Shown here: positions 9,550 through 36,405 of the stretch, piece after piece
Numbering within the stretch: the first letter of the stretch is position 1
Layout of the letters: every line of letters starts with the position of its first letter
Source: Raphanus sativus
Lineage: Eukaryota > Streptophyta > Magnoliopsida > Brassicales > Brassicaceae
Direction: 5' to 3'
Assembly: GCF_000801105.2 (NCBI RefSeq)
Contig: NC_079511.1
Location: forward strand, 16,019,792 to 16,083,791
DNA: 64,000 nucleotides
The notes under the pieces: model-generated
What the model saw: the letters and a program-made list of their open reading frames with translations, nothing else
The model's database searches: none
What the model was told of the DNA's origin: nothing
Translations under genes and position numbers: made by a program

Positions 9550-9860
9550 ACACCGAACTGAATATCTGGAGTACCCTATCGAGCAAGTCCGACGCTGGTT
9601 TCGGGTTTAGAGCCGAAATGCTCTGTTTTGGCTTCTGTGGTATGCGTCGTATACTAGTTCCCGGTGTCGTAAACACTTCTTCTTCATCGGAGAACCAATG
9701 TTCCAATCCCCCCGAGTGATAACCTAACGCGTGAAGAGACATATTTGTCTTGTCACGTTCTTCTGCTTCACCGTGCCATATAACTGGCATGGAGCCATGA
9801 TTGAACTCGATAGTATTGTTTGGTCCATCTCATATTACTCTTCCTAATGCATTCAACCAT

Positions 9861-10313: not shown

Positions 10314-10626
10314 CTCTGCTGGCGTTAATTTTTTCTAGAATCTCTTCTGGCCCGTTTGCTTTTGAGGTCCTAGTTTTGTTGTTTTTACTTCTGACCCTCG
10401 ATTCTCTTGCCGAGCTGATACCCCAAGTGTCTTAGTGATAGCGCTAGATGACCACCAAATGTCCTGGCGCGTTTATCACTGTCAATCTTGTACTCGTTAT
10501 CTCTAGAATACTCTATGGCTTCAAAGATTGTTTCAGGGCGCAGATATTCAACTTATTTCCGTAAGTTATCTGTCAACCCTGCACAGAATTTCCATTGTTG
10601 ATCACCCGAGAGTCTTGTTTGTCGGC

Positions 10627-11486: not shown

Positions 11487-11730
11487 TGAATTGTTGGTAA
11501 TAGATATTTTTAGATGATGACATATTGTATCAAAAACTAAAAAATGTTTTGAATAAAATTTGACATAAATACTTTAGGATAGAAAGAAAATAAAATCAAC
11601 CAATCAATTTAAAACAGTATTTCTGGATAATTCTAAAAATAGTCTCAAAGAATTATATATATGTACATGTTCAAATCGAAGGTTTCCTACAATAAACACA
11701 AGAAACATTTATTTAAAGTTGAGAGTTACA

Positions 11731-12037
11731 ATGGCAGCATCCAAAGTTGCTTTATCTTGTATTGTTCTAGCTTGTCTTGCTAGTCTTCATGAATGTATGT
11801 CATATATAGCTTACGTTCCATCCAATTCTCTAGCATCAGTACCATTAAAATAATATTAATATACTCCATTATCTTTTAATTGTTTTATTCTTTCAATTTT
11901 ATGTAGGTGCCAGCTCTAAAAAAAAACCTAACGGAACATGCTCTAAAACACCAAAGTTTGGTTGGTGTTGCAGCTCCACTACACAATGCCGAAGCACCAA
12001 AGCGGAATGTGACAAACATTGCATCTGGGGCCTTTGA
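11731..12037 (+). CDS. Secreted Cys-rich peptide, copy 1 (most divergent)
   Basis: Exon 1 is 11731-11794, a GT-AG intron of 112 nt follows, exon 2 is 11907-12037; 64 residues. A hydrophobic signal peptide (VALSCIVLACLASL) is followed by a basic Lys/Pro stretch and the Cys framework C-X10-C-X8-CC-X5-C-X6-C-X3-C, whose first Cys (residue 22) is created at the splice junction (T|GT). It differs from the other copies in MAAS at the start, SSKKKPNG after Cys22, and a C-terminus of I-W-G-L: it lacks the 10-bp duplication that gives copies 2-5 and 7-12 an earlier stop. CCAAT (11600) and TATATATAT (11654) precede it. Family unknown; extracellular signalling or defence is the natural guess. Confidence 0.85.
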
Positions 12038-13672
12038 ATTTTTCTGAAGAGAATTTCCATTATTATATGTTTCAAATATTTTCATACTTCACAAATTTAA
12101 ATTTGAATAATAAATAATATTCCTATTCCACAGGACGAGGAGCTAGTATTATGTACTAAATGTTTTGGAATTTCTTTGAAAGTTCAATAAATAGTTATTT
12201 TCTGACTTTCTTCAATTGTATTTAAGAATTTTATAAATGTTACATAAAATGAGAATAAAACCATTTAAGACTATTTAACTGTATTTAAATGTTGTTAACA
12301 CTTGTTCTATTGTATAAAATAAAAATATGTAACTTTAAACTATAGTATAAATTAATACGACATCAAAAATTTAAGATCACGTAAATAATAATTTTCACCC
12401 CGCCCGGATTGGACTAGTTTAAAATATTTTTATATGATTATATACTGTATTAAAATCGATAAAAGTGTGGGTCTTCTCAAATATAGTCCCACTAAAAATT
12501 TTATAAAAACATACATGATAAATTTTGTATAAATATAATCAAAACATTTTTTCACAATGAACTATATCGCTAATTATTGTTAAACATTCAAAAAACAATT
12601 TCATATTGTTTTCACATTTACATTGAAAACACATTTGTATTATATAATCCATATCTTATATACATAAAATAATAGATAAAGACTAAGTTTTAATTAATTA
12701 ATATATAAACCATGACAAATATTATTTTTCTTATTTTACATAAAGTATTTATAATTATGTGAATGACAAAAATGAATTTTTGGTAAACTAATAATATATC
12801 ATATTTACACCATTTCTACATGCAGACATTTTATCATAGAATAACTTAAAGACATAATTTGGTGTTTATGCATCTTATGAGAAACAATATATTATTGATA
12901 TGAACAAGCTTATCATTGACAAAGTTTTGTCTTATCTAATTAAAAATGAGGTTCTAACAGTTATTACTATTAATTTTATTAAGTTATTTTTACGTAAGAT
13001 GGGTCATTTGATAACTTATAATAGCCGTCTCGGCGTTAGTTTTTATTAGATACATAATTTTTTAAAATATACTCTTTCAGTAAACTAGAAATGTTATGCC
13101 AACTATTACCTACAATAATATTTCACTTCAATCAACATATTCAAGACTTGCATAATATATACAGATTCATCCTTTAAGAATCGAAAAATATATTTTTCAT
13201 CTATAAAGATTTAGTGAATAAATATTTGGCCACATATTTAATCTTTCAACTTGGCAATATATATGTGGCTATCAGTAATTGATATTTTTAGGTGGTGATA
13301 TATCCTACGAAAAAATAAAATGAGAATTTAAAACGACTTTGTAACAGAAATATTTTAGGATATAAGGATAATAAGGGTAACCAAAAAAATCTAATTTTAG
13401 ATTCTACGTATCATGACGCGGCAATTTTTCAGGGACATATACACATGTTATAGTTTAATGGTATTGATGTGAAATTAGTAAATGCTAAAATTGGTAGTTA
13501 ATCTATTGTTAATTGTATTTTATCCACATATTTAATTATTCAACGTTACATATATATATGGTCGTTGATAATAGATATTTTTAGGTGATGACATATTGTA
13601 TCAAAAACTAAAATAAATGTTTTGAATAAAATTTGACATAAATATTTTAGGATAGAAAGAAAATAAAATCAA

Positions 13673-13736
13673 CCAATCAATTTAAAACAGTATTTCTGGA
13701 TAATTCTAAAAATAGTCTTCAAAGAATTATATATAA
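13673..13736 (+). promoter_or_regulatory. Promoter of the peptide genes (copy 2 as example)
   Basis: A CCAAT box (13673-13677) and TATATATAA (13728-13736) lie about 134 and 79 bases before the ATG at 13807. The same pair precedes copies 1, 4, 6, 7, 8, 10, 11, 12 and 13 at nearly the same distance, and is absent from copies 3, 5 and 9. The block between the boxes is among the best conserved noncoding sequence of the unit. Confidence 0.65.
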
Positions 13737-13806
13737 GTACATGTTCAAATCGAAGGTTTCCTACAAAAAAAACACACTAAAATTTTATTTAAAGTGGAGA
13801 GTTACA

Positions 13807-14107
13807 ATGTCGGCATTCAAAGTTGCTTTATTTTGTATTGTTCTAGTTTGTCTTGCTAGTCTTCATGAATGTATGTCATATATAGCTTACGTTCCATCCA
13901 AATCTCTAGCATCATTACCATTAAAATAATATTAATATACTCCATTATCTTTTAATTGTTTTATTCTTTAAATTTAATGCAGGTGCCAGCCCTCAAAGAA
14001 AACCTAAGGGAACATGCTCTAAAGAACCAAAGTATGGTTGGTGTTGCAGCTCCACTACACAATGCCGAAGCACCAAAGCGGAATGTGACAAACATTGTAT
14101 CTGGTAG
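13807..14107 (+). CDS. Secreted Cys-rich peptide, copy 2 (type A)
   Basis: Exon 1 is 13807-13870, the intron 13871-13982 (GTATGT...TGCAG), exon 2 is 13983-14107; 62 residues. It starts MSAFK and has the Lys/Pro-rich PQRKPKG segment and KYGWCC in place of the KFGWCC of types B and C, ending I-W-stop. Cysteines fall at residues 22, 33, 42, 43, 49, 56 and 60. An AATAAA lies at 14272-14277. An in-frame ATG at 13741 would add 22 residues, but it lies only a few bases after the TATA box, so 13807 is preferred. Confidence 0.85.
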
Positions 14108-15117
14108 CATCTGGGGCCGTTGAATATTTCTGAAGAGAATTTCCATAATTATATGTACCAAATATTTCATACTTCATAAATTTAAATTTGAATAATAAAT
14201 AATCATTCCTATTCCACAGAAGGAGCAGCTAGTATTATGTACTAAATGTTTTGGAATTTCTTTGAAAGTTCAATAAATAGTTATTTTTCTGACTTTCTTC
14301 AATTGTATTTAAGAATTTTATAAATGTTACATAAAATGAGAATATACCCATTTAAGACAATTTAACTGTATTTAAGTGTTGTTAACACTTTATCTATTGT
14401 ATAAAATAAAATATGTAACTTTAAACTATAGTATAAATTAACACTACATAAAAAAATTTAAGATCACATAAATAATAATTTTCACCCGCCCGAATTGGAC
14501 TAGTTTAAAATATTTTTATATGATTATATACTGTATTAAAATCCATAAAAGTGTGGGTCTTCTCAAATATGGTCCCACTAAAATTTTATAAAAAATTAAA
14601 TGATAAATTTTGTATAAATATAATCAAAACATTTTTCAGAAATGAACTATATCGCTAATTATTGTAACCATTCAAAACAATTTCTTATCGTTTTCTCATT
14701 TACATCTAAAACACATTTGTATTATATAATCCATATCTTATAAACATAAAATAATCAAACAAGAACAATATAAAAGACTAAGTTTTAATTAATTAATATA
14801 TAAACCATGACAAAAATTAGTTTTCTTATTTTACATAAAGTATTTATAATTATGTGAATGACAAAAATGAGTTTTTTGGTAAACTAATAATATATCATAT
14901 TTACACCATTTCTACATACAGAATTTTTATCGTAGAATAACCTAAAAGACATAATTTGGTGTTTATGCATCTTATGGGAAACAATATATTATTGATATGA
15001 ACAAGCTTATCATTGACAAATGTTTTTCTTATCGAATTAAAAATGAGGTTTTAACAGTTATTACTATTAATTTTATTAAGTTATTTTTACGTAAGATAGG
15101 TCATTTTTATTGTCCAC

Positions 15118-15417
15118 ATGTCGGCATCCAAAGTTGCTTTATTTTGTATTGTTCTAGTTTGTCTTGCTAGTCTTCATGAATGTATGTCATATATAGCTTA
15201 CGTTCCATCCAATTCTCTAGCATCATTACCATTAAAATAATATTAATATATTCCATACTTTTTAATTTTTTCATTCTTTAAATTTTATGCAGGTGCCAGC
15301 CCTAAAAAAAAACCTAAGGGAACATGCTCTAAAACACCAAAGTTTGGTTGGTGTTGCAGCTCCACTACACAATGCCGAAGCACCAAAGCGGAATGTGAAA
15401 AACATTGTATCTATTAG
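15118..15417 (+). CDS. Secreted Cys-rich peptide, copy 3 (type B, promoter lost)
   Basis: Exons are 15118-15181 and 15293-15417, in frame after splicing. Protein type B: MSASK start, PKKKPKG, KTPKFGW, Glu instead of Asp in the AECEKHC segment, ending I-Y-stop. The bases before the ATG (TTGTCCAC) belong to a segment normally about 290 bp further upstream, so CCAAT, TATA and 5' leader are gone. A further deletion of about 530 bp upstream (compared with the copy 4 to 5 interval) brings the copy 2 intergenic region next to it, and another of about 770 bp lies downstream near 15667. It is probably silent unless read through from copy 2. Confidence 0.7.
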
Positions 15418-16488
15418 CATCTGGGGCCGTTGAATATTTCCGAAGAGAATTTCCATAATTATATGTCCCAAATGTTTTCATACTTCATAAATTTAAATTT
15501 GAATAATAAATAATAATTCCTATTCCACAGGAAGAGCAGCTAGTATTATGTACTAAATGTTTTGGAATTTCTTTGAAAGTTCAATTAAAATAGTTATTTT
15601 CTGACTTTCTTCAATTGTATTTAAGAATTTTATAAATGTTACATAAAATGAGAATATACCCATTTATAACTTATGATAGCCGTCTCGAAGTTAGTTTTTA
15701 TTAGATACATAATTTTTTTTAAAATACTCTTTCAGTAAACTAGAAATTTCATGCCAATTATTACCTACAATAATATTTCACTTCAATCAACATATTAAAG
15801 ACTTGCATAATATATACATATTAATCCTTTAAGAATCGAAGATATATTTTTCCATCTATAAAAAATTAGTGAATAAATAATTAGTAGCTAATTCATTGCT
15901 AATTGATTTTGGCCACATATTCAATCTTTCAACGTGGCAATATATATGTGGCTATGAGTAATTGGTATTTTTAGGTGGTGATATATCCTACGAAAAAATA
16001 AAATTAGAATTTAAAACGACTTTATAACGTAAATATTTTAGGATATAAGGATAATAAGGGTAACCCAAAAATCTAATTTTAGATTCTACGGATCATGACG
16101 CGGCAATTTTTCAGGGACATATACACATGTTACAGTTTAATGGTATTGATGTGAAATTAGTAAATGCTAAAATTGGTAGTTAATCTATTGTTAATTGTAT
16201 TTTATCCACATATTTAATTATTCAACGTTACATATATATATGGTCGTTGATAATAGATATTTTTAGGTGATGACATATTGTATCAAAAACTAAAATAAAT
16301 GTTTTGAATAAAATTTGACATAAATATTTTAGGATAGAAAGAAAATAAAATCAACCAATCAATTTAAAACAGTATTTCTGGATAATTCTAAAAATAGTCT
16401 TCAAAGAATTATATATATGTACATGTTCAAATCGAAGGTTTCCTACAAAAAAAACACACTAAAATTTTATTTAAAGTGGAGAGTTACA

Positions 16489-16790
16489 ATGTCGGCATTC
16501 AAAGTTGCTTTATTTTGTATTGTTCTAGTTTGTCTTGCTAGTCTTCATGAATGTATGTCATATATAGCTTACGTTCCATCCAAATCTCTAGCATCATTAC
16601 CATTAAAATAATATTAATATACTCCATTATCTTTTTAATTGTTTTATTCTTTAAATTTAATGCAGGTGCCAGCCCTCAAAGAAAACCTAAGGGAACATGC
16701 TCTAAAGAACCAAAGTATGGTTGGTGTTGCAGCTCCACTACACAATGCCGAAGCACCAAAGCGGAATGTGACAAACATTGTATCTGGTAG
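16489..16790 (+). CDS. Secreted Cys-rich peptide, copy 4 (type A)
   Basis: Exons are 16489-16552 and 16666-16790. The protein is identical to copy 2 as read. The full promoter is present (TATATATAT near 16410). It forms an A-B pair with copy 5, and the pair matches copies 8-9 in spacing (1,841 versus 1,839 bp), indicating a larger duplication. Confidence 0.85.
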
Positions 16791-18329
16791 CATCTGGGGC
16801 CGTTGAATATTTCTAAAGAGAATTTCCATAATTATATGTTCCAAATATTTTCATACTTCATAAATTTAAATTTGAATAATAAATAATCATTCCTATTCCA
16901 CAGAAGGAGCAGCTAGTATTATGTACTAAATGTTTTGGAATTTCTTTGAAAGTTCAATAAATAGTTATTTTCTGACTTTCTTCAATTGTATTTAAGAATT
17001 TTATAAATGTTACATAAAATGAGAATATACCCATTTAAGACAATTTAACTGTATTTAAGTGTTGTTAACACTTTATCTATTGTATAAAATAAAATATGTA
17101 ACTTTAAACTATAGTATAAATTAACACTACATAAAAAATTTAAGATCACATAAATAATAATTTTCACCCCGCCCGAATTGGACTAGTTTAAAATATTTTT
17201 TTATGATTATATACTGTATTAAAATCCATAAAAGTGTGGGTCTTCTCAAATATGGTCCCACTAAAATTTTATAAAAAATTAAATGATAATATTTTGTATA
17301 AATATAATCAAAACATTTTTTCAGAATGAACTATATCGCTAATTATTGTTAACCATTCAAAACAATTTCTTATCGTTTTCTCATTTACATCTAAAACACA
17401 TTTGTATTATATAATCCATATCTTATAAACATAAAATAATCAAACAAGAACAAGATAAAAGACTAAGTTTTAATTAATTAATATATAAACCATGACAAAA
17501 ATTAGTTTTCTTATTTTACATAAAGTATTTATAATTATGTGAATGACAAAAATGAGTTTTTGGTAAACTAATAATATATCATATTTACACTATTTCTACA
17601 TACAGAATTTTTATCGTAGAATAACCTAAAAGACATAATTTGGTGTTTATGCATCTTATGGGAAACAATATATTATTGATATGAACAAGCTTATCATTGA
17701 CAAATGTTTGTCTTATCGAATTAAAAATGAGGTTTTAACAGTTATTACTATTAATTTTATTAAGTTATTTTTACGTAAGATAGGTCATTTTTATAACTTA
17801 TGATAGCCGTCTCGAAGTTAGTTTTTATTAGATACATAATTTTTTTAAAAATACTCTTTCATTAAACTAGAAATTTTATGCCAATTATTACGTACAATAA
17901 TATTTCACTTCAATCAACATATTCAAGACTTGCATAATATATACATATTAATCCTTTAAGAATCGAAGATATATTTTTCCATCTATAAAAAATTAGTGAA
18001 TAAATAATTAGTAGCTAATTCATTGCTAATTGATTTTGGCCACATATTCAATCTTTCAACGTGGCAATATATATGTGGCTATGAGTAATTGGTATTTTTA
18101 GGTGGTGATATATCCTACGAAAAAATAAAATTAGAATTTAAAACGACTTTGTAACGTAAATATTTTAGGATATAAGGATAATAAGGGTAACCCAAAAATC
18201 TAATTTTAGATTCTACGGATCATGACGCGGCAATTTTTCAGGGACATATACACATGTTACAGTTTAATGGTATCGATGTGAAATTAGTAAATGCTAAAAT
18301 TGGTAGTTAATCTATTGTTAGTTGTCCAC

Positions 18330-18631
18330 ATGTCGGCATCCAAAGTTGCTTTATTTTGTATTGTTCTAGTTTGTCTTGCTAGTCTTCATGAATGTATGTC
18401 ATATATAGCTTACGTTCCATCCAATTCTCTAGCATCATTACCATTAAAATAATATTAATATATTCCATTACCTTTTTAATTTTTTCATTCTTTAAATTTT
18501 ATGCAGGTGCCAGCCCTCAAAAAAAACCTAAGGGAACATGCTCTAAAACACCAAAGTTTGGTTGGTGTTGCAGCTCCACTACACAATGCCGAAGCACCAA
18601 AGCGGAATGTGAAAAACATTGTATCTATTAG
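18330..18631 (+). CDS. Secreted Cys-rich peptide, copy 5 (type B, promoter lost)
   Basis: Exons are 18330-18393 and 18507-18631, open after splicing, ending I-Y-stop, with PQKKPKG and KTPKFGW. The upstream sequence reads TTAGTTGTCCACATG, a direct fusion of far-upstream DNA to the start codon that removes the promoter block present in copies 4, 7 and 8. Copy 9 has the same fusion, so both descend from one deletion. Confidence 0.7.
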
Positions 18632-20474
18632 CATCTGGGGCCGTTGAATATTTCCGAAGAGAATTTCCATAATTATATGTCCCAAATGTTTTCATACTTC
18701 ATAAATTTAAATTTGAATGATAAATAATAATTCCTATTCCACAGGAAAAGCAGCTAGTATTATGTACTAAATGTTTTGGAATTTCTTTGAAAGTTCAATT
18801 AAATAGTTATTTTCTGACTTTCTTCAATTGTATTTAAGAATTTTATAAATGTTACATAAAATGAGAATATACCCATTTAAGAATATTTAACTGTATTTAT
18901 ATGTTGTTAACACTTGTTCTATTGTATAAAATAAAAATATTTAACTTTAAACTATAGTATAAATTAATACTACATAAAATTTTTAAGATCACGTAAATAA
19001 TAATTTTCACCCCGCCCGGATTGGACTAGTTTAAAATATTTTTATATGATTATATACTGTATTAAAATCCATAAAGGTGTGGGTCTTCTCAAATTTGGTC
19101 CCACTAAAATTTTATAAAAAATAAAATGATAAATTTTGTATAAATAAAATCAATACATTTTTTCACAATTAACTATATCGCTAATTATTGTTAACCATTC
19201 AGAACAATTTCTTATGGTTTTCTCATTAACATCTAAAACACATTTGTATTATATAATCAATATCTTATATACATAAAATAGTCAAACAAGAACAAGACAA
19301 AAGACTAAGTTTTAATTAATTAATATATAAACCATGACAAAAATTATTTTTCTTATTTTACATAAAATATTTATAACTTTGTTAATGACAAAAATGAATT
19401 TTTGGTAAACTAATAATATATCATATTGACACCATTTCTACATGCAGAATTTTTATCGTAGAATAACTTAAAAGACATAATTTGGTGTCTATGCATCTTA
19501 TGGGAAACAATATATTATTGATATGAACAAGCTTATCATTGACAAATGTTTGTCTTATCGAATTAAAAATGAGGTTTTAACAGTTATTACTACTAATTTT
19601 ATTAAGTTATTTTTACGTAAGATAGGTCATTTTTATTACTTATGATAGCCGTCTCTGAAGTTAGTTTTTTTATTATATACATAATTTTTTTTAAAAATAC
19701 TCTTTCAGTAAACTAGAAATGTTATGCCAGTTATTACCTACAATAATATTTCACTTCAATCAACATATTCAAGACTTGCATAATATATACATATTAATCC
19801 TTTAAGAATCGAAGATATATTTTTCCATCTATAAAAAATTAGTGAATAAATAATTAGTAGCTAATTCATTGCTAATTGATTTTGGCCACATATTTAATCT
19901 TTCAACGTGGCAATATGTATGTGGCTATCAGTAATTGGTATTTTTAGGTGGTGATATATCCTACGAAAAAAATAAAATGATTATTTAAAACGACTTTGTA
20001 ACGTAAATATTTTAGGATATAAGGATAATAAGGGTAACCCAAAAATCTAATTTTAGATTCTACGGATCATGACGCGGTAATTTTTCAGGGACATATACAC
20101 ATGTTACAGTTTAATGGTATTGATGTGAAATTAGTAAATGCTAAAATTGGTAGTTAATCTATTGTTAGTTGTATTTTATCCACATATTTAATTATTCAAC
20201 GTTACATATATATATATATATATATATGGTCGTTGATAATAGATTTTTTTAGGTGATGACCTAATGTATAAAAACTAAAATAAATGTTTTGTATAAATTT
20301 TGACATAAATATTTTAGGATAGAAAAAAATAAAATCAACCAATCAAATTAAAACAGTATTTCTGGATAATTCTAAAAATAGTCTTCAAAGAATTATATAT
20401 ATGTACATGTTCAAATCGAAGGTTTCCTACAAAAAAAAAACACACTAAACATTTATTTAAAGTGGAGAGTTACA

Positions 20475-20538
20475 ATGTCGGCATCCAAAGTTGCTTTATT
20501 TTGTATTGTTCTAGTTTGTCTTGCTAGTCTTCATGAAT
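20475..20538 (+). pseudogene. Cys-rich peptide copy 6: orphan exon 1
   Basis: The promoter and exon 1 (signal peptide, MSASK type) with its GTATGT donor are intact. The intron, however, runs at about 20604 straight into sequence normally about 1.2 kb downstream of exon 2 (AAACTAGAAATGTTATGCC). Exon 2 is deleted and the distance to copy 7 is only 858 bp. Exon 1 could still splice to copy 7 exon 2 (acceptor at 21508) and give a normal peptide, but this is only a possibility. Confidence 0.85.
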
Positions 20539-21332
20539 GTATGTCATATATAGCTTACGTTCCATCCAAATCTCTAGCATCATTACCACTAAAATAATAT
20601 TAATAAACTAGAAATGTTATGCCAACTATTACCTACAATAATATTTCACTTCAATCAACATATTCAAGACTTGCATAATATATACAGATTCATCCTTTAA
20701 GAATCGAAAAATATATTTTTCATCTATAAAGATTTAGTGAATAAATATTTGGCCACATATTTAATCTTTCAACGTGGCAATATATATGTGGCTATCAGTA
20801 ATTGATATTTTTAGGTGGTGATATATCCTACGAAAAAATAAAATGAGAATTTAAACGACTTTGTAACAGAAATATTTTAGGATATAAGGATAATAAGGGT
20901 AACCAAAAAATCTAATTTTATATTCTACGGATCATGACGCAGAAATTTTTCAGGGACATATATACATGTTACAGTTTAATGGTATTGATGTGAAATTAGT
21001 AAATGCTAAAATTGGTAGTTAATCTATTGTTAGTTGTATTTTATCCACATATTTAATTGTTCAACGTTACATATATATATATATATGGTCGTTGCTAATA
21101 GATATTTTTAGGTGATGACATATTGTATCAAAAACGAAAATAAATGTTTTGAATAAAATTTGACATAAATAATTTACGATAAAAAAAAATAAAATCAACC
21201 AATCAATTTAAAACAGTATTTCTGGATAATTCTAAAAATAGTCTCAAAGAATTATATATATGTACATGTTCAAATAAAAGGTTTCCTACAAAAAAAAAAA
21301 CACGAAACATTTATTTAAAGTGGAGAGTTACA

Positions 21333-21633
21333 ATGTCGGCATCCAAAGTTGCTTTATTTTGTATTGTTCTAGTTTGTCTTGCTAGTCTTCATGAATGTAT
21401 GTCATATATACCTTACGTTCCATCCAATTCTCTAGCATCATTACCATTAAAATAATATTAATATACTCCATTATCTTTTTAATTGTTTTATTCTTTAAAT
21501 TTATGCAGGTGCCAGCCCTCAAAGAAAACCTAAGGGAACATGCTCTAAAACACCAAAGTTTGGTTGGTGTTGCAGCTCCACTACACAATGCCGAAGCACC
21601 AAAGCGGAATGTGACAAACATTGTATCTGGTAG
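21333..21633 (+). CDS. Secreted Cys-rich peptide, copy 7 (A/B hybrid)
   Basis: Exons are 21333-21396 and 21509-21633; 62 residues. It mixes types: MSASK start, PQRKPKG as in A and C, KTPKFGW as in B, and DKHCIW as in A. The mixture suggests gene conversion or recombination between units. The promoter is present (TATATATAT near 21253). The stop is TAG directly after the Trp. Confidence 0.85.
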
Positions 21634-23455: not shown

Positions 23456-23757
23456 ATGTCGGCATTCAAAGTTGCTTTATTTTGTATTGTTCTAGTTTGT
23501 CTTGCTAGTCTTCATGAATGTATGTCATATATAGCTTACGTTCCATCCAAATCTCTAGCATCATTACCATTAAAATAATATTAATATACTCCATTATCTT
23601 TTTAATTGTTTTATTCTTTAAATTTAATGCAGGTGCCAGCCCTCAAAGAAAACCTAAGGGAACATGCTCTAAAGAACCAAAGTATGGTTGGTGTTGCAGC
23701 TCCACTACACAATGCCGAAGCACCAAAGCGGAATGTGACAAACATTGTATCTGGTAG
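23456..23757 (+). CDS. Secreted Cys-rich peptide, copy 8 (type A)
   Basis: Exons are 23456-23519 and 23633-23757. The protein matches copies 2 and 4 as read, with MSAFK start and KYGWCC. Full promoter. It pairs with copy 9 as copy 4 does with copy 5. Confidence 0.85.
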
Positions 23758-25294: not shown

Positions 25295-25597
25295 ATGTCG
25301 GCATCCAAAGTTGCTTTATTTTGTATTGTTCTAGTTTGTCTTGCTAGTCTTCATGAATGTATGTCATATATAGCTTACGTTCCATCCAATTCTCTAGCAT
25401 CATTACCATTAAAATAATATTAATATATTCCATTATCTTTTTAATTTTTTCATTCTTTAAATTTTATGCAGGTGCCAGCCCTCAAAAAAAAACCTAAGGG
25501 AACATGCTCTAAAACACCAAAGTTTGGTTGGTGTTGCAGCTCCACTACACAATGCCGAAGCACCAAAGCGGAATGTGAAAAACATTGTATCTATTAG
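25295..25597 (+). pseudogene. Cys-rich peptide copy 9 (type B, frameshifted, promoter lost)
   Basis: Exon 1 (25295-25358) and both splice sites (exon 2 from 25472) are intact. The A-run after CCTC near 25484-25492 has nine A where copy 5 has eight. The added base shifts the frame and brings a TAA within a few codons, before the Cys framework. It also carries the same promoter-removing fusion as copy 5 (TTGTCCACATG). Confidence 0.85.
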
Positions 25598-28500
25598 CAT
25601 CTGGGGCCGTTGAATATTTCCGAAGAGAATTTCCATAATTATATGTCCCAAATGTTTTCATACTTCATAAATTTAAATTTGAATAATAAATAATAATTCC
25701 TATTCCACAGGAGGAGCAGCTAGTATTATGTACTAAATGTTTTGGAATTTCTTTGAAAGTTCAATTAAAATAGTTATTTTCTGACTTTCTTCAATTGTAT
25801 TTAAGAATTTTATAAATGTACATAAAATGAGAATATACCCATTTAAGAATATTTAACTGTATTTATATGTTGTTAACACTTGTTCTATTGTATAAAATAA
25901 AAATATTTAACTTTAAACTATAGTATAAATTAATACTACATAAAATTTTTAAGATCACGTAAATAATAATTTTCACCCCGCCCGGATTGGACTAGTTTAA
26001 AATATTTTTATATGATTATATACTGTATTAAAATCCATAAAGGTGTGGGTCTTCTCAAATTTGGTCCCACTAAAATTTTATAAAAAATAAAATGATAAAT
26101 TTTGTATAAATATAATCAATACATTTTTTCACAATTAACTATATCGCTAATTATTGTTAACCATTCAGAACAATTTCTTATGGTTTTCTCATTAACATCT
26201 AAAACACATTTGTATTATATAATCAATATCTTATATACATAAAATAGTCAAACAAGAACAAGACAAAAGACTAAGTTTTAATTAATTAATATATAAACCA
26301 TGACAAAAATTATTTTTCTTATTTTACATAAAATATTTATAACTTTGTTAATGACAAAAATGAATTTTTGGTAAACTAATAATATATCATATTTACACCA
26401 TTTCTACATGCAGAATTTTTATCGTAGAATAACTTAAAAGACATAATTTGGTGTCTATGCATCTTATGGGAAACAATATATTATTGATATGAACAAGCTT
26501 ATCATCGACAAATGTTTGTCTTATCGAATTAAAAATGAGGTTTTAACAGTTATTACTACTAATTTTATTAAGTTATTTTTATGTAAGATAGGTCATTTTT
26601 ATTACTTATGATAGCCGTCTCTGAAGTTAGTTTTTTTATTATATACATAATGTTTTTAAAAAATACTCTTTCAGTAAACTAGAAATGTTATGCCAGTTAT
26701 TACCTACAATAATATTTCACTTCAATCAACATATTCAAGACTTGCATAATATATACATATTAATCCTTTAAGAATCGAAGATATATTTTTCCATCTATAA
26801 AAAATTAGTGAATAAATAATTAGTAGCTAATTCATTGCTAATTGATTTTGGCCACATATTTAATCTTTCAACGTGGCAATATGTATGTGGCTATCAATAA
26901 TTGGTATTTTTAGGTGGTGATATATCCTACGAAAAAAATAAAATGATTATTTAAAACGACTTTGTAACGTAAATATTTTAGGATATCTATATATATAAAG
27001 GAGACTTTTCTGGCATCTCCCACAGCCACGTCGTCTCTGGAGGAGTGGGCATTTCGCGCCACGTGTCGTCGCGCTGAGCCGGCTGTGAAGGTCACGCGTT
27101 CTATTATTGTCCTGCGCGTAGCTCACCGTTTTCAGTTTACAAAGATTTCCAGATTTCTTCTGCGTTCTTCTTCTTACGACTGCCTCTTCATCTTCCAGGT
27201 TTCACCAACAAAAGCAACGCCTTTTCTTACCCGTAAGTCCGTAACGCCTCATAACTCCTTCAAATCCGTCATTTATTTCGATTTTTCCCTTGATAAATCC
27301 ACACTTTGATTTCTGAAGAGAGAGAGAATCGAAAAATATGTAGAATTTTAGGGTTCGGGCCGCCCATTCCTTGTCCTGATTTCTAATCATTTTTCCCGAT
27401 CCGACGAGAGGATGAAGAAGACGCAGTATCAAAACATTGGCGTGAATTTGGTTCTCTCGGATGCAACACTCGATCTAGATGAGCAGGTGCCTCCATTTCT
27501 CTTCCCACACTGGTTCTGTATCCCCTTTTCGTTTCTTGCTGTTTAAATGATGTTGAGTGGATCTCAGATTTTGTTTTAAATGAAAAGTTTGTTTTTTTCT
27601 TTCTTCTGTGAGTATGTGATTACTCGGTTTGATGTCTGAGTTGTGGAGAATGGCTTTTGGGATAGGTAGAGGTTGATGCATGTGTATATTAGCATTCAAG
27701 TCAGTTTTGCGGGTTGAAAATATTACTTTGTTATATAATTTCAAGGTAGATATGTATTGGGTTCGGAATAGGTGGTTCACTTGCACTTTGATAACCCTTT
27801 TAGTCTGGGTTTGCCTGACTCACATAATTTGATGATTGCTTCAAAATCTGATACATTGATGTTAATTTCGACAACTAATTGATGCAAGCAATATGTTACA
27901 TAGCATATTAGATCAAAGCTTAAACTTACCCAGCACAGAAGGAAGAGATGGGACAGATGGAGTATTGATTGCTTGACGATAAACAACAAAACCGGTGGGA
28001 TCTGGAACTCAAACGCGATCCAGAAGAATAGTTTATTCTAGCACGATTCTGACCATATGATCAGTTACTTGAGCTAGCAAACACGGGCAAACAACTCCCT
28101 GGTATGTATTTTCAATTTCAGTATTAAAGTTTTTATTTTAAGCGTGAGTTAACATAGTCCCATATAATATTTTCTCAGACATAATGGGGGAGCTTTGTTC
28201 AATTAGTAACACAATAGACAACCGTTTGCTGGGGAGACACAGCGTGTGTCGTGTGATGCTCACTTCGCGTCTAGAAAGGTACTTTAAGGATGTCTATTTT
28301 TCCTTGATGATGTTATTCGGATCATATTCCCCAGTGGTGATCTTTCTGTTTAGTTTCATTTTATTTCAAAGCAGATGTATAGTATTATCTCATAGAACAT
28401 ACCTCTCTCGGTATTCATGTTTAGTTACAATACTATTGTGACAACAATAGTTTCTAATAAAACACCAATTATGTGCAGTCATTCTGTCTCATATAAAATT

Positions 28501-28641
28501 TCCCGAGGACAAACTGAACTAAATATGTTGAGAACTTTCGATCTCATGTTGACTTCCTTTACTCTAACGTATCCCCCATTTGACTTTGTAGCATGATTTA
28601 TGTTCAGGGAAGCAAATGTTTGTGTTAGTATGTTTGACTCT

Positions 28642-29228
28642 TTGGGTTGGTGTTATATTGGGTGTTCAAAGAAACTCATCCGAGAGGAATATTCCTTTAC
28701 ATGTGTCGCATGCAATGAAACTAATGCTCTGGCTGAACTCAGGTGAGTAATTTTTATTTCTGTCTTTCTGCGTATTGTAAGAAAAACCAAAAATAATTTC
28801 CCTTTCAACAGGTAGCGGGTGATACTTTCTGTGTTAGACAACACTGGCACCGCGGTTTTCCTTGGCTGTGATATGGAGGTGGCTAAACTGACCCACGTTC
28901 TAGCTTCTGAGGCTGCACAGATTGTGGTATGAGAGCTTGCACCTATGCCAACTTTGCTGTGAGTGTTGCTCACTTCTCCTAACGTAATTAGTTTTTTATA
29001 AAAATAAATGGTCAGTCTTTGTTATGTTCATAACAGGAAGGTGTAAAGGTCCCTCAAGCAGCGCTTCCCGGAGCTGTGACACCAGGATCAGATGTCAGAG
29101 ATGCTAACACTTGCAAAGTTGCAGAGCAAGCAACTACACCTGATGGTTCACTTCCCGGACATTTACCAACAGTGAAAGAACAAGTTGATCTGGAAGAGAA
29201 TGCTCCCAAGAAAGCACGTGAGGAATGA
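28642..29228 (+). pseudogene. RPA70-like C-terminal fragment captured by the Helitron
   Basis: Three exon-like pieces keep frame over GT-AG introns. The first (to 28742) carries a zinc-ribbon pattern with WCYIGCSKKL then FTCVACNE. The second (28812-28926) reads VLDNTGTAVFLGCD and a KLTHVLASEAAQIV helix, the OB-fold C-terminal domain of the replication protein A large subunit family. The third (29037-29228) is a tail with a PKKAR nuclear-localisation-like motif and a TGA stop. The second exon opens with TAG at 28813-28815 where Tyr (TAC/TAT) is expected, a nonsense change. RPA-like genes are frequent Helitron-associated cargo in plants. Confidence 0.75.
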
Positions 29229-30053
29229 GACCCCTGTTAGAACCTAAACAACCATGTCTTCTCCTTATCAATTAAACTTTTAGCATCTTTCAACTTCGCT
29301 CAAGTCTATTCCCTTGAGGAAAAAAACTCAAGTGTCGTGGTTGTTGTCATTTCTTTTATCTATGCAAATTTTATTTCCCTATAAAAAAACTCAAGTGTCG
29401 TGGTTGTTATTTCTTTTATGAATGCAAGTCTTTTTAACAATATGCATCCACATGTCTTGGATTTATAATTCCGTGGTCTTCTGAATAAGCAACTTCTTCG
29501 GTGTCTTCTTGATCATGGGCATCAAATTCGGCATACATATTTCAGTGAGAGGTTATGAGTATCAAAAACATTCTAGGTGAGTTGAGTTCTACTATTGAAT
29601 TTCAGTTTAAGCTTCCACCATAATAGGTATTACTTCTCATTCATCCATACATACAAATGCTAAAAACATTTTACAGAAAAAATCTTCCAATTTATTACAA
29701 GAGGATTTTTTATGTTCTAATTTTCAGTTTCATTTACATATTGTTTTCGATTTTCGTTCCAATTTTCAAACAAAATATATAAATATTTTTACTCATTAAC
29801 TAATATATTTAAATTCTAACTAAATCAATTTTCTTACGACTTCCAAATTTTTATTTTATTTTTACTGAATCAGTTAGTCACAATCATTAATAATATTCCA
29901 CTTTGGACTAAACAATTTCAAAACAAAGTAATACATTACGATCGCTAACAATTATCAAATGGACGAAAAATATCACTCTTTCAACGTATTTTCATTTTCA
30001 TTTCTAAGACCATAAAATAAATTATAAATTCATTTCAAAAAAAATATACGAAC

Positions 30054-30070
30054 CCGGCGCGTAGCGCCGG
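30054..30070 (+). terminator. Helitron 3' terminal hairpin
   Basis: CCGGCGC-GTA-GCGCCGG forms a perfect 7-bp stem with a 3-base loop, 11 nt before the CTAG end at 30081. This is the standard Helitron termination signal. Confidence 0.9.
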
Positions 30071-30525
30071 AATACCACTAGTAAGGATAATAAGGGTAAC
30101 CCAAAAATCTAATTTTAGATTCTACGGATCATGACGCCGCAATTTTTCAGGGACATATACACATGTTACAGTTTAATGGTATTGATGTGAAATTAGTAAA
30201 TGCTAAAATTGGTAGTTAATCTATTGTTAGTTGTATTTTATCCACATATTTAATTATTCAACGTTACATATATATATGGTCGTTGATAATAGATTTTTTT
30301 AGGTGATGACCTAATGTATAAAAAACTAAAATAAATGTTTTGAATAAATTTTGACATAAATATATTAGGATAGAAAAAAATAAAATCAACCAATCAAATT
30401 AAAACAGTATTTCTGGATAATTCTAAAAATAGTCTTCAAAGAATTATATATATGTACATGTTCAAATCGAAGGTTTCCTACAAAAAAAAAACACACTAAA
30501 CATTTATTTAAAGTGGAGAGTTACA

Positions 30526-30827
30526 ATGTCGGCATCCAAAGTTGCTTTATTTTGTATTGTTCTAGTTTGTCTTGCTAGTCTTCATGAATGTATGTCATAT
30601 ATAGCTTACGTTCCATCCAAATCTCTAGCATCATTACCACTAAAATAATATTAATATACTCCATTATCTTTTTAATTGTTTTATTCTTTAAATTTTATGC
30701 AGGTGCCAGCCCTCAAAGAAAACCTAAGGGAACATGCTCTAAAGAACCAAAGTTTGGTTGGTGTTGCAGCTCCACTACACAATGCCGAAGCACCAAAGCG
30801 GAATGTGACAAACATTGTATCTATTAG
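30526..30827 (+). CDS. Secreted Cys-rich peptide, copy 10 (type C)
   Basis: Exons are 30526-30589 and 30703-30827; 62 residues. Type C: MSASK start, PQRKPKG, KEPKFGWCC, DKHCIY-stop. Full promoter (TATATATAT near 30446). It is the first copy after the Helitron, which left its promoter intact because the insertion lies about 440 bp upstream of the start. Confidence 0.85.
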
Positions 30828-32658
30828 CATCTGGGGCCGTTGAATAATTATGAAGAGAATTTCCATAATTATATGTTCCAAATATTTGCATACTTCATAA
30901 ATTTAAATTTGAATAATAAATAATAATTCCTATTCCATAGGAGGAGCAGCTAGTATTATGTACTAAATGTTTTGGAATTTCTTTGAAAGTTCAATAAATA
31001 GTTATTTTCTGACTTTCTTCAATTGTATTTAAGAATTTTATAAATGTTACATAAAATGAGAATAAACCCATTTAAGACTATTTAACTGTATTTAAAATTT
31101 GTTAACACTTGTTCTATTCTATAAAATAAAAATATTTAACTTTAAACTATAGTATAAATTAATACTACATAAAATATTTAAGATCACGTAAATAATAATT
31201 TTCACCTCGCCCTGATTGGACTAGTTTAAGATATTTTTATATGATTATATACTGTATTAAAATTCATAAAAGTGTGGGTCTTCTCAAATATGGTCCCGCT
31301 AAAACTTTATAAAAAATTAAATGATAAATTTTGTATAAATATAATCAAAATATTTTCTCACAATGAACTATATCGGTAATTATTGTTAACCATTCAGAGC
31401 AATTTCATATTGTTTTCTCATTTACATCTAAAACACATTTCTATTATATAATCCATATCTTATATACATAAAATAATCAAACAAGAACAAGATAAAAGAC
31501 AAAGTTTTAATTAATTAATATATAAACCATGACAAAAAATATTTTTCTTATTTTACATAAAATATTTATAATTATGTTAATGACAAAAATGAATTTTTGG
31601 TAAACTAATAATATATCATATTTAGACCATTTCTACATGCAGAATTTTTATCGTAGAATAACTTAAAAGACATAATTTGGTGTTTATGCATCTTATGGGA
31701 AACAATATATTATTGATATGAACAAGCTTATCATTGACAAATGTTTGTCTTATCGAATTAAAAATGAGGTTTTAACAGTTATTACTACTAATTTTATTAA
31801 GTTATTTTTACGTAAGATAGATCATTTTTATAACTTATGATAGCCGTCTCGAAGTTAGTTTTTATTATATACATAATTTTTTTAAAAAAAAAAATACTCT
31901 TTCAGTAAACTAGAAATGTTATGCCAATTATTACCTACAATAATATTTCACTTCAATCAACATATTCAAGACTTGCATAATATATACATATTAATCCTTT
32001 AAGAATCGAAGATATATTTTTCCATCTATAAAAAAATTAGTGAATAAATAATTAGTAGCTAATTCATTGCTAATTGATTTTGGCCACATATTTAATCTTT
32101 CAACGTGGCAATATATATGTGGCTATCTGTAATTGGTATTTTTAGGTGGTGGTATATCCTACGAAAAAATAAAATGATAATTTAAAACGACTTTGTAACG
32201 TAAATATTTTAGGATATAAGGATAATAAGGGTAACCCAAAAATCTAATTTTAGATTCTACGGATCATGACACGGCAATTTTTCAGGGACATATACACATG
32301 TTACAGTTTAATGGTATTGATGTGAAATTAGTAAATGCTAAAATTGGTAGTTAATCTATTGTTAGTTGTATTTTATCCACATATTTAATTATTCAACGTT
32401 ACATATATATATGGTCGTTGATAATAGATTTTTTAGGTGATGACATAATGTATAAAAAACTAAAATAAATGTTTTGAATAAAATTTGACATAAATATTTT
32501 AGGATCGAAAAAAATAAAATCAACCAATCAAATTAAAACAGTATTTCTGGATAATTCTAAAAATAGTCTTCAAAGAATTATATATATGTACATGTTCAAA
32601 TCGAAGGTTTCCTACAAAAAAAAACACACTAAACATTTATTTAAAGTGGAGAGTTACA

Positions 32659-32960
32659 ATGTCGGCATCCAAAGTTGCTTTATTTTGTATTGTTCTAGTT
32701 TGTCTTGCTAGTCTTCATGAATGTATGTCATATATAGCTTACGTTCCATCCAATTCTCTAGCATCATTACCACTAAAATAATATTAATATACTCCATTAT
32801 CTTTTTAATTGTTTTATTCTTTAAATTTTATGCAGGTGCCAGCCCTCAAAAAAAACCTAAGGGAACATGCTCTAAAGAACCAAAGTTTGGTTGGTGTTGC
32901 AGCTCCACTACACAATGCCGAAGCACCAAAGCGGAATGTGACAAACATTGTATCTATTAG
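32659..32960 (+). CDS. Secreted Cys-rich peptide, copy 11 (type C variant)
   Basis: Exons are 32659-32722 and 32836-32960. It differs from copy 10 by one visible change in the mature region (PQKKPKG instead of PQRKPKG). Full promoter and 112-113 nt intron. The spacing to copy 12 (2,134 bp) is that of an undamaged unit. Confidence 0.85.
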
Positions 32961-34792
32961 CATCTGGGGCCGTTGAATAATTATGAAGAGAATTTCCATA
33001 ATTATATGTTCCAAATATTTGCATACTTCATAAATTTAAATTTGAATAATAAATAATAATTCCTATTCCACAGGAGGAGCAGCTAGTATTATGTACTAAA
33101 TGTTTTGGAATTTCTTTGAAAGTTCAATAAATAGTTATTTTCTGACTTTCTTCAATTGTATTTAAGAATTTTATAAATGTTACATAAAATGAGAATAAAC
33201 CCATTTAAGACTATTTAACTGTATTTAAAAGTTGTTAACACTTGTTCTATTCTATAAAATAAAAATATTTAACTTTAAACTATAGTATAAATTAATACTA
33301 CATAAAATATTTAAGATCACGTAAATAATAATTTTCACCCCGCCCTGATTGGACTAGTTTAAGATATTTTTATATGATTATATACTGTATTAAAATTTAT
33401 AAAAGTGTGGGTCTTCTCAATATGGTCCCGCTAAAACTTTATAAAAAATTAAATGATAAATTTGTATAAATATAATCAAATATTTTTTCACAATGAACTA
33501 TATCGCTAATTATTGTTAACCATTCAGAGCAATTTCATATTGTTTTCTCATTTACATCTAAAACACATTTCTATTATATAATCCATATCTTATATACATA
33601 AAATAATCAAACAAGAACAAGATAAAAGACAAAGTTTTAATTAATTAATATATAAACCATGACAAAAAATATTTTTTCTTATTTTACATAAAATATTTAT
33701 AATTATGTTAATGACAAAAATGAATTTTTGGTAAACTAATAATATATCATATTTAGACCATTTCTACATGCAGAATTTTTATCGTAGAATAACTTAAAAG
33801 ACATAATTTGGTGTTTATGCATCTTATGGGAAACAATATATTATTGATATGAACAAGCTTATCATTGACAAATGTTTGTCTTATCGAATTAAAAATGAGG
33901 TTTTAACAGTTATTACTACTAATTTTATTAAGTTATTTTTACGTAAGATAGGTCATTTTTATAACTTATGATAGCCGTCTCGAAGTTAGTTTTTATTATA
34001 TACATAATTTTTTTTAAAAAAAAAAATACTCTTTCAGTAAACTAGAAATGTTATGCCAATTATTACCTACAATAATATTTCACTTCAATCAACATATTCA
34101 AGACTTGCATAATATATACATATTAATCCTTTAAGAATCGAAGATATATTTTTCCATCTATAAAAAATTAGTGAATAAATAATTAGTAGCTAATTCACTG
34201 CTAATTGATTTTGGCCACATATTTAATCTTTCAACGTGGCAATATATATGTGGCTATCTGTAATTGGTATTTTTAGGTGGTGGTATATCCTACGAAAAAA
34301 TAAAATGATAATTTAAAACGACTTTGTAACGTAAATATTTTAGGATATAAGGATAATAAGGGTAACCCAAAAATCTAATTTTAGATTCTACGGATCATGA
34401 CGCGGCAATTTTTCAGGGACATATACACATGTTACAGTTTAATGGTATTGATGTGAAATTAGTAAATGCTAAAATTGGTAGTTAATCTATTTTTAGTTGT
34501 ATTTTATCCACATATTTAATTATTCAACGTTACATATATATATATGGTCGTTGATAATAGATTTTTTTAGGTGATGACATATTGTATAAAAAACTAAAAT
34601 AAATGTTTTGAATAAAATTTGACATAAATATTTTAGGATAGAAAAAAATAAAATCAACCAATCAATTTAAAACAGTATTTCTGGATAATTCTAAAAATAG
34701 TCTTCAAAGAATTATATATATGTACATGTTCAAATCGAAGGTTTCCTACAAAAAAAAACACACTAAAAATTTATTTAAAGTGGAGAGTTACA

Positions 34793-35093
34793 ATGTCGGC
34801 ATCCAAAGTTGCTTTATTTTGTATTGTTCTAGTTTGTCTTGCTAGTCTTCATGAATGTATGTCATATATAGCTTACGTTCCATCCAAATCTCTAGCATCA
34901 TTACCACTAAATAATATTAATATACTTCATTATCTTTTTAATTGTTTTATTCTTTAAATTTTATGCAGGTGCCAGCCCTCAAAGAAAACCTAAGGGAACA
35001 TGCTCTAAGGAACCAAAGTTTGGTTGGTGTTGCAGCTCCACTACACAATGCCGAAGCACTAAAGCGGAATGTGACAAACATTGTATCTATTAG
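34793..35093 (+). CDS. Secreted Cys-rich peptide, copy 12 (type C)
   Basis: Exons are 34793-34856 and 34969-35093. The encoded peptide is as copy 10, with synonymous changes (for example ACT in the RSTK segment). It is the last complete member. The following intergenic unit lost about 0.5 kb at about 35800, where the ATG ACA AAA region joins the TTTCAACGTGGC region. Confidence 0.85.
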
Positions 35094-36366
35094 CATATGG
35101 GGCCGTTGAATTTCTCTGAAGAGAATTTCCATAATTATATGTTCCAAATATTTTCATACTTCATAAATTTAAATTTGAATAATAAATAATAACTCTTATT
35201 CCACAGGAGGAGCAGCTAGTATTATGTACTAAATGTTTTGGAATTTCTTTGAAAGTTCAATAAATAGTTATTTTCTGACTTTCTTCAATTGTATTTAAGA
35301 ATTTTATAAATGTTACATAAAATGAGAATAAACCCATTTAAGACTATTTAACTGTATTTAAATGTTGTTAACACTCGTTCTATTGTATAAAATAAAAATA
35401 TTTAACTTTAAACTATAGCATAAATTAATTCTACATAAAACATTTAAGATCACGTAAATAATAATTTTCACCACGCCCGGATTGGACTAGTTTAAAATAT
35501 TTTTATATGATTATATACTGTATTAAAATCCATAAAAGTGTGGGTCTTCTCAAATATGGTCCCACTAAAATTTTATAAAAATTAAATGATAAATTTTGTA
35601 TAAATATAATCAAAACATTTTCTCACAATGAACTATATGGCTAATTATTGTTAACCATTCAGAACAATTTCATATTGTTTTATCATTTACATCTAAAACA
35701 CATTTGTATTATATAATCCATACCTTATATACATAAAATAATCAAACAAGAACAAGATAAAAGACTAAGTTTTAATTAATTAATATATTAGCCATGACAA
35801 AATTATTTCAACGTGGCAATACATATGTGGCTATCAGTAATTGGTATTTTTAGGTGGTGATATATCCTACGAAAAAATAAAATGAGAATTTAGAACGACT
35901 TTGTAACGTAAATATTTTATGATAGAAGGATAATAAGGGTAACCCAAAAATCTATATTTAAATTCTACGGATCATGACACGGCAATTTTTCAGAGACATA
36001 TACACATGTTACCATTTAATGGTATTGATGTGAAATTAGTAAATGCTAAAATTGGTATTAATCTATCGTTAGTTGTATTTTAGCCACATATTTAATTATT
36101 CAACGTTATATATATATATATATGGTCGTCGCTAATAGATTTTTTAGGTGATGACATATTGTATCAAAAACTAAAATAATGTTTTGAATGAAATTTGACA
36201 TAGATTTTTTAGGATGGAAAGAAAATAAAATCAACCAATCAATTTAAAACAGTATTTCTGGATAATTATAAAAATAGTCTTCAAAGAATTATATATATGT
36301 ACATGTTCAAATCGAAGATTTCCTACAATCAACACACAAAACATTTATTTACAGTGGAGAGTTACA

Positions 36367-36405
36367 ATGTCGGCATCCAAAGTTGCTTTATTTTGTATTG
36401 TTCTA
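36367..36405 (+). pseudogene. Cys-rich peptide copy 13, cut in exon 1 by an LTR element
   Basis: The promoter and first 13 codons (MSASKVALFCIVL) are intact; after TTCTA the sequence becomes TGTTGGGGTC, the TG end of an LTR. The remainder of exon 1 and exon 2 are not found in the window. The array therefore ends at this insertion, or continues beyond the nested elements outside the window. Confidence 0.85.

What the first reader, a model, noticed from the sequence alone, without database searches (positions are those of the whole stretch)
11490..36405. Recently expanded 13-copy cluster of an unnamed secreted Cys-rich peptide
Each copy encodes a signal peptide plus a basic Lys/Pro segment and a fixed Cys framework (C-X10-C-X8-CC-X5-C-X6-C-X3-C), split by one short phase-1 intron. 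Eight copies keep promoter, splice sites and frame. Such clusters in plants usually encode reproductive-recognition, pollen-coat or defence peptides. The framework does not match SCR/SP11, LURE or classical defensin spacing as I know them. The visible variation is confined to a few mature positions (R/K, E/T, Y/F, D/E, W/Y).
Basis: partly seen in the sequence, partly recalled or inferred. Interest (0 to 1): 0.87.

Follow-up and report, generated by a model that had tools for sequence, protein, structure and literature searches.

The report
Mustard-family secreted peptide gene array
The plant sequence holds a tandem cluster of 13 copies, eight of them complete, of an unnamed gene predicted to make a small secreted cysteine-rich peptide; relatives were found only in cabbage and mustard relatives, and the peptide likely works as a cell-to-cell signal similar to known pollen-coat and embryo peptides, although its use is untested.

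Summary
Window 11493-36405 is an array of ~2.1 kb units with 13 exon-1 and 11 exon-2 copies. Ten copies keep frame and splice sites; eight of these also keep the proximal promoter. The finding reaches beyond the window: the same genome has a second, diverged array ~270 kb away in the opposite orientation, similar units on an unplaced contig, and one intact dispersed copy on contig C5. Annotated relatives occur in four Brassica species and Sinapis alba. No Pfam family is matched. The framework, C-X10-C-X8-CC-X5-C-X6-C-X3-C with an invariant Trp before CC, comes closest to the PCP-B/ESF1/MEG reproductive peptides but lacks the first cysteine of their CXCC motif, so I do not file it as a member. 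Within the array, exon 2 is about as variable as the intron. Between loci it diverges like 3' noncoding DNA while the cysteines and Trp stay fixed, which argues against a passive satellite. Best reading: a signalling-type extracellular ligand (confidence 0.42). Rivals: defence peptide, or largely unexpressed array. Expression was not testable here, and a direct search for PCP-B/ESF1 genes in this genome did not complete.

The parts
11493..36405 (+). tandem array 1, ~2.13 kb units (some shortened), 13 exon-1 copies
11731..12037 (+). copy 1: exon 1 11731-11794, exon 2 11907-12037; 64 aa, complete
13807..14107 (+). copy 2: exon 1 13807-13870, exon 2 13983-14107; 62 aa, complete
15118..15417 (+). 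copy 3: exon 1 15118-15181, exon 2 15293-15417; in frame, proximal promoter missing, unit rearranged
16489..16790 (+). copy 4: exon 1 16489-16552, exon 2 16666-16790; complete
18330..18631 (+). copy 5: exon 1 18330-18393, exon 2 18507-18631; in frame, proximal promoter missing
20475..20538 (+). copy 6: exon 1 only, exon 2 missing
21333..21633 (+). copy 7: exon 1 21333-21396, exon 2 21509-21633; complete
23456..23757 (+). copy 8: exon 1 23456-23519, exon 2 23633-23757; complete
25295..25599 (+). copy 9: exon 1 25295-25358, exon 2 25472-25599 frame-broken; proximal promoter missing
30526..30827 (+). copy 10: exon 1 30526-30589, exon 2 30703-30827; complete
32659..32960 (+). copy 11: exon 1 32659-32722, exon 2 32836-32960; complete
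34793..35093 (+). copy 12: exon 1 34793-34856, exon 2 34969-35093; complete
36367..36405 (+). copy 13: first 39 nt of exon 1, then the array stops; what cuts it was not identified
26986..30081 (.). Helitron-like insertion between copies 9 and 10, inside the unit spacer
   Evidence: read: starts TC, ends CTAG, CCGGCGC/GCGCCGG hairpin ~10 nt before the end, inserted between A and T of the unit sequence; class named from recalled Helitron hallmarks

Best explanation
The block is a tandem array of 13 copies (eight complete) of a gene family, found so far only in Brassica, Sinapis and this genome, that encodes a short hydrophobic leader followed by a basic ~40-residue Cys-rich segment, and the peptide likely acts as a secreted disulfide-folded ligand in cell-to-cell signalling, in the manner of PCP-B/ESF1 peptides. 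Shown: gene anatomy, copies, second array, dispersed copy, relatives, invariant cysteines and Trp. Predicted: secretion, and a strand-strand-strand-helix fold. Inferred: that the fast-changing residues between fixed cysteines carry specificity, that array copies raise dose and give near-identical variants, and that the receptor is a cell-surface kinase, as FERONIA is for PCP-B. Untested: tissue of expression; reproductive tissue is the likeliest guess.
For: Framework kept in 10 of 11 two-exon window copies and in 7 of 15 A-type copies of array 2 on C1 and 4 of 7 on C2419. The same seven cysteines and Trp, with first loops of X10-13 and X7-9, are in the C5 copy and in 7 of 18 annotated relatives; of the other 11, P0009 is cut, P0010 has another N-terminus and 9 are frame-broken. 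The 6 Cys and the Trp after residue 22: 7 of 7 kept between array 1 and C5 with 20 of 40 residues identical (P 0.004); 7 of 7 between C5 and P0003 with 16 of 42 identical (P 0.0004); weaker for array 1 against array 2 (P 0.048). Net charge after residue 22 is +5 to +7, hydrophobic core from residue 6 (three proteins). C-X6-C-X3-C and the aromatic residue before CC are as in PCP-B/ESF1 (PMC9856046 table passage; PMC5215366 passages; that Tyr-45/Trp-48 is the X of CXCC is my reading). Profile match to maize MEG14 over W-CC...C...C...C, P 0.0033; 4 of 150 shuffles with Cys fixed and 1 of 150 full shuffles score as high. AlphaFold2 gives E11-14, E18-21, E27-28, H31-37 twice; PCP-B models are a helix plus a three-stranded sheet. 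PCP-Bs bind FER with species preference (PMC9908550 passages).
Against: The first Cys of CXCC (third of the PCP-B framework) is Gly, Val, Leu or Ile here; mutation of conserved cysteines of this region is reported to abolish PCP-B activity (legend passage). CC-X5-C is shorter than the X6-9 of PCP-Bs. No Pfam match for window copies (only a chance-level O_Spanin hit); hhalign probability only 9.8. MEG likeness does not carry over to ESF1: PMC4236715 finds no similarity between the two beyond cysteines. No Foldseek or VIA match; only the best of five models reaches pLDDT 76.6 and 72.3, the others 49-64. Within-array substitutions look neutral. dN/dS between loci is below 1 (0.29-0.67 after residue 22), and the decayed B copy also shows faster exon 2 against C5 (44/121 vs 40/176, P 0.013), so adaptive change is not shown. 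No expression data.
Confidence: 0.42

Rival explanations
1. A defence peptide: a small basic Cys-rich antimicrobial with hevein- or knottin-like spacing, amplified for dose.
For: CC-X5-C-X6-C-X3-C is the spacing of hevein-type domains (recalled); Pfam Chitin_bind_1 is the one family hit by more than one member: E 0.014 and 0.031 for the trimmed P0003 and array-2 segments, 0.41 and 0.84 for the full proteins, 2 of 12 members (best E 0.054); net charge +5 to +7.
Against: All those scores lie below the Pfam cut-off (best 16 against 27.8 bits); no window copy matches. The aromatic chitin-binding positions after CC known from hevein (recalled) are not aromatic here. The stretch from the second Cys to CC is 7-9 residues, not the 4-5 of hevein (recalled).
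Confidence: 0.25
2. Mostly a passive tandem repeat: one or few copies are expressed, the rest are passengers kept alike by unequal exchange.
For: Within the array exon 2 diversity 0.043 is close to the intron's 0.035, and 12 nonsynonymous to 3 synonymous variable codons fits no constraint. Five of 13 copies are incomplete. In array 2, 8 of 15 A-type copies on C1 lack the intact framework, and 0 of 14 and 0 of 7 B copies have AG at the acceptor site.
Against: Between loci the gene is not uniform: exon 1 plus intron 9/177 differ, exon 2 27/125, and the Cys and Trp are kept. An intact dispersed copy exists in this genome and groups with proteins of B. oleracea and B. rapa.
Confidence: 0.2
3. A developmental or nutritional peptide of the ESF1/MEG type acting in seed (endosperm to embryo or maternal tissue) rather than at pollination.
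For: The best likeness found to a solved structure's sequence is maize MEG14 (it was fetched by a PCP-B-type pattern, not by the family itself); MEG genes also expand locally, 11 of 13 after allotetraploidisation (PMC4236715 abstract passage).
Against: Same membership failures as above (no CXCC); no tissue data.
Confidence: 0.13

Closest known systems
PCP-B pollen-coat peptides (Brassicaceae; CRP5460/5500/5515)
   Same: small, basic, secreted, Brassicaceae; aromatic residue before CC; C-X6-C-X3-C end; B. oleracea members allow C-X(4-10)-C first; frequent gene duplication
   Different: first Cys of CXCC absent; CC-X5-C instead of X6-9; no sequence match found, though no PCP-B sequence could be obtained for a direct comparison; expression unknown
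ESF1 embryo surrounding factors
   Same: grouped with PCP-B in one family, conserved Trp-48 in ESF1.3
   Different: seven or eight cysteines there; six or seven here without CXCC; sequences could not be obtained for a direct test
Maize MEG peptides (7dab MEG14, Pfam PF24153)
   Same: W/Y-CC...QC..T.AEC...C likeness, P 0.0033; local expansion
   Different: CYCC, CC-X7-C in MEG14; Pfam Meg matched by none of the natural sequences scanned
Hevein-type chitin-binding domains
   Same: CC-X5-C-X6-C-X3-C spacing (recalled); weak Pfam scores for array 2 and relatives
   Different: below cut-off; chitin-binding aromatics absent (recalled rule); longer loop before CC
AtLURE1 / SCR / PCP-A (defensin-like)
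   Same: species-limited clusters of secreted Cys-rich peptides (PMC3525529, abstract start in listings only)
   Different: different cysteine spacing (PCP-A and SCR rows; LURE recalled)

Membership tests
PCP-B/ESF1/MEG | CXCC motif | tested here: not met
   [G/V/I/L]-W-CC in the window copies, array-2 A type, C5 and the relatives with that part intact; motif described in PMC4236715 and PMC9856046 passages
[quoted passage not shown]
   six certain; seven if C22 stays after signal cleavage; cleavage site not predicted by a tool
PCP-B/ESF1/MEG | C-X6-C-X3-C at the C-terminus | tested here: met
PCP-B/ESF1/MEG | conserved aromatic residue just before CC | tested here: met
   Trp invariant; role in PMC5215366 passages
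PCP-B/ESF1/MEG | CC-X(6-9)-C spacing of PCP-B | tested here: not met
   X5 in 11 of 11 sequences parsed; the wider MEG range X4-10 given in PMC8198727 would allow it
PCP-B/ESF1/MEG | sequence-profile match | tested here: inconclusive
   no Pfam Meg match for natural sequences; a test peptide with a cysteine added reached Meg only at E 0.47; hhalign to MEG14 P 0.0033, probability 9.8; no ESF1 or PCP-B sequence obtained, genome search for PF18209 (number recalled as ESF1) did not complete
PCP-B/ESF1/MEG | helix plus three-stranded sheet | tested here: inconclusive
PCP-B/ESF1/MEG | expression in anther, central cell or endosperm | not testable with these tools
   no transcript data held
Hevein / Chitin_bind_1 | Pfam score above cut-off | tested here: not met
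   best 16.0 of 27.8 bits, array 2 and relatives only
Hevein / Chitin_bind_1 | aromatic chitin-binding residues after CC | tested here: not met
   no aromatic residue between CC and the last Cys in the six sequences; the rule itself is recalled
SCR / PCP-A / nsLTP | published cysteine spacing | tested here: not met
   patterns

The most novel reading that the evidence does not exclude
A Brassiceae-born branch of the PCP-B/ESF1 ligand family that gave up one cysteine of the activity-critical CXCC motif and was then amplified into large, separately evolving arrays: a natural competitor or species-tuned variant ligand at FERONIA-type stigma or ovule receptors, and so a dosage-variable reproductive barrier locus.
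Probability: 0.15. Interest if true: 0.8.

Novelty: new variant of a known kind. Interest (0 to 1): 0.5.

Why it matters
Pollen-coat peptides of the PCP-B type govern pollen hydration and species barriers in Brassicaceae, and ESF1/MEG peptides act in seed. An array-amplified family with its own cysteine framework, unnamed in the libraries searched, would be a new candidate for reproductive isolation or seed traits in Brassica crops. Automatic annotation handles it badly: 9 of the 18 database entries found are, by my reading, frame-broken models of the repeated exons.

Tried and rejected
Pfam, NCBIfam, PDB sequence and PDB fold comparisons gave no family. Weak hits rejected as chance or composition: O_Spanin_T7, NDUB6, DUF6413, CFAP77, ILCR1_N, granulin, a trypsin inhibitor, HVO_2753. 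A pattern scan for PCP-B-type CXCC found none in the window nor in L009-L036, which include 200 kb beside the window. Four PDB pattern queries meant to fetch ESF1 returned MEG14 in three and nothing in one. Three X-pattern queries gave nothing in Pfam. Positive selection was considered and not claimed: exon 2 exceeds exon 1 plus intron, but not the 3' flank (27/125 against 110/565, P 0.62; 44/121 against 153/512, P 0.19), and synonymous sites are raised too. A first fuzzy-match script timed out; and part only waited.
Full report
What is there. Window 11493-36405 is a head-to-tail array of ~2.13 kb units. Thirteen exon-1 and 11 exon-2 copies lie on the + strand. Exon 1 is 64 nt, so the intron is phase 1; it is 111-113 bp with GTATGT...AG in 11 of 11. 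Ten of 11 two-exon copies read through to 62-64 residues: a hydrophobic leader, HEC at the splice junction, a Lys-rich stretch, then C33-X8-C42C43-X5-C49-X6-C56-X3-C60 with Trp41 just before CC. Copies 3, 5 and 9 have lost the proximal upstream sequence, 9 is also frame-broken, 6 has no exon 2, 13 is cut in exon 1; eight copies are complete. A 3.1 kb insertion (26986-30081) between copies 9 and 10 has Helitron hallmarks (hallmarks recalled). LTR-retroelement remains adjoin the left edge; on the right the nearest identified ones are at 45330-46846, and what cuts copy 13 was not identified.

How it grew. Pairs 4/8, 5/9 and 10/11 differ by only 0.5-0.7% over 1.4 kb, other pairs by 2-9%, and copy 12, with a truncated spacer, by 15-17% (10 of 13 copies compared, 3, 6 and 13 left out). 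So recent block duplications sit on top of an older array.

Beyond the window. The host genome is held: 433 Mb, unnamed, window at C1:16019792-16083791. The product finds 78 matches there, a lower bound by the tool's own note: the window array, a second array at C1:16327706-16366054 on the minus strand, unplaced contig C2419 with similar units, and one dispersed match on C5. The distance between arrays is 271.5 kb. Array 2 has ~2.3 kb units. Fifteen A-type genes were parsed on C1 and seven on C2419, with intact framework in 7 and 4; 14 and 7 B-type copies lie about 386 bp downstream of an A copy, and 0 of 14 and 0 of 7 have AG at the acceptor site. Many A copies differ by single-base indels in runs of one base, which could be assembly error. 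One edge copy pairs an A-type exon 1 with a B-type exon 2. The C5 copy (L016:3434-3744) is intact, with intron GTATGT...ACAG and a 65-residue product, and aligns with about 1.26 of the 2.13 kb array unit, upstream region included. Of the DNA between the arrays, 200 kb (L017-L036) held no other copy; the last 40 kb was not read, but the whole-genome search reported nothing there.

Relatives. A protein search with the single sequence gave 2 proteins, a small profile 3, and a profile with array 2 and C5 added 18, all from Brassica carinata, napus, rapa, oleracea and Sinapis alba (tribe Brassiceae for the two taxa looked up). Such searches reach only proteins sharing short exact words. Of these 18, seven are complete, P0009 is cut, P0010 has another N-terminus, and nine (P0002, P0011-P0018) are frame-broken models by my reading. 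P0001 stands for 12 sequences on one 58 Mb B. carinata contig, so an array there is likely. The first loop is X10-13, the second X7-9, the rest X5, X6, X3. A tree of 13 rows separates a dispersed type (C5, P0005, P0007, P0008; 97/95) from an array type, and array 1 forms its own group (100/99) (6 of 10 inner branches are weak). The species of the window is not known; that array-1-type proteins were not in the protein database suggests a less annotated Brassiceae genome (inference).

Selection. Inside array 1: diversity exon 1 0.018, intron 0.035, exon 2 0.043, 3' 400 bp 0.072 (11 copies), upstream 200 bp 0.036 (8 copies); 12 nonsynonymous and 3 synonymous variable codons for 147.5 N and 38.5 S sites, mean pN/pS 1.75. 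Between loci: array 1 against array 2 A, exon 1 plus intron 9/177, upstream 37/287, exon 2 27/125 (P 2e-5 against exon 1 plus intron); array 1 against C5, 34/176, 62/278 and 44/121 (P 0.0013); the excess is also seen at A/T sites alone. Against this: exon 2 does not exceed the 3' flank (P 0.62 and 0.19); dN/dS after residue 22 is 0.67, 0.29 and 0.41; A against its decayed neighbour B shows no excess (18/125 against 22/177, P 0.61), while B against C5 does (P 0.013). So the peptide-coding exon changes about as fast as 3' noncoding DNA and the 5' part of the gene is slower. Against that background the six C-terminal cysteines and Trp41 stay: 7 of 7 between array 1 and C5 (P 0.004), 7 of 7 between C5 and P0003 (P 0.0004), 7 of 7 between array 1 and array 2 (P 0.048); C22 is invariant too, though it also spans the splice junction. 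A fixed framework with free loops is what a disulfide-folded secreted peptide would show, and not what a passive satellite would.

What it is like. No Pfam, NCBIfam or PDB family is matched. PCP-B of B. oleracea is C-X(4-10)-C-X8-C-X-CC-X(6-9)-C-X6-C-X3-C (PMC9856046 table passage). The present family is C-X(10-13)-C-X(7-9)-CC-X5-C-X6-C-X3-C, with Trp where PCP-B-gamma has Tyr-45 and ESF1.3 Trp-48 (PMC5215366 passages; the placing is my reading). So, if C22 is kept, seven PCP-B cysteines have a counterpart and the first of CXCC does not. Maize MEG14 (7dab) aligns over this half with P 0.0033 but probability 9.8; with its cysteines held fixed 4 of 150 shuffles score as high. PMC4236715 reports no similarity of ESF1 to MEG beyond cysteines. 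Two AlphaFold2 runs give the same three strands and helix at moderate confidence for the best of five models; fold comparison of the first found nothing, which for 40 residues says little; the second model was not compared. Cysteines of the CXCC region are needed for PCP-B function (PMC9908550 legend passage), so I do not file this as a PCP-B. It may still work like one. Hevein-type spacing is the other lead, weaker because scores stay below the cut-off and the chitin-binding aromatics (recalled) are absent.

Mechanism proposed. The leader would direct secretion (hydrophobic core; no signal-peptide predictor was available); the oxidised peptide would fold into a small sheet-plus-helix core; loop residues would contact a receptor; many near-identical copies would set dose. 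Tissue and receptor are inference. Print check: nine literature searches, not all aimed at this family and covering only the held open-licence library, listed no paper on it; papers were seen as listings, abstract starts or passages only, none in whole.

Noticed in passing
window 26986-30081: 3.1 kb Helitron-like element (TC...CTAG, 3' hairpin, A/T target; hallmarks recalled) inserted in the array spacer.
   Followed up: partly
window 55764-56747: IRX15/GXM-type gene (PF21729 in the first part), split into two ORFs in one frame (55764-56225, 56235-56747), perhaps by an intron or a stop.
   Followed up: no
window 42454-42903 (-): 149 aa frame with a weak match to the C-terminal domain of telomerase reverse transcriptase (PF23119, E 1e-4, below cut-off), perhaps a TERT gene fragment.
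   Followed up: no
window 4147-11486: Athila and other LTR-retroelement remains; a minus-strand ORF, gag-like by eye, begins at 11486, a few bases from the array edge at 11493, leaving no room for an LTR.
   Followed up: no
P0011-P0018: Database models in Brassica that seem to join exon 1 to an internal acceptor of exon 2, some twice, in another frame; annotation artefacts of arrays or alternative splicing.
   Followed up: no
L009-L015: Array 2 keeps a decayed second gene copy (B) beside 14 A copies on C1 and 7 on C2419, a possible neutral control for selection tests.
   Followed up: partly
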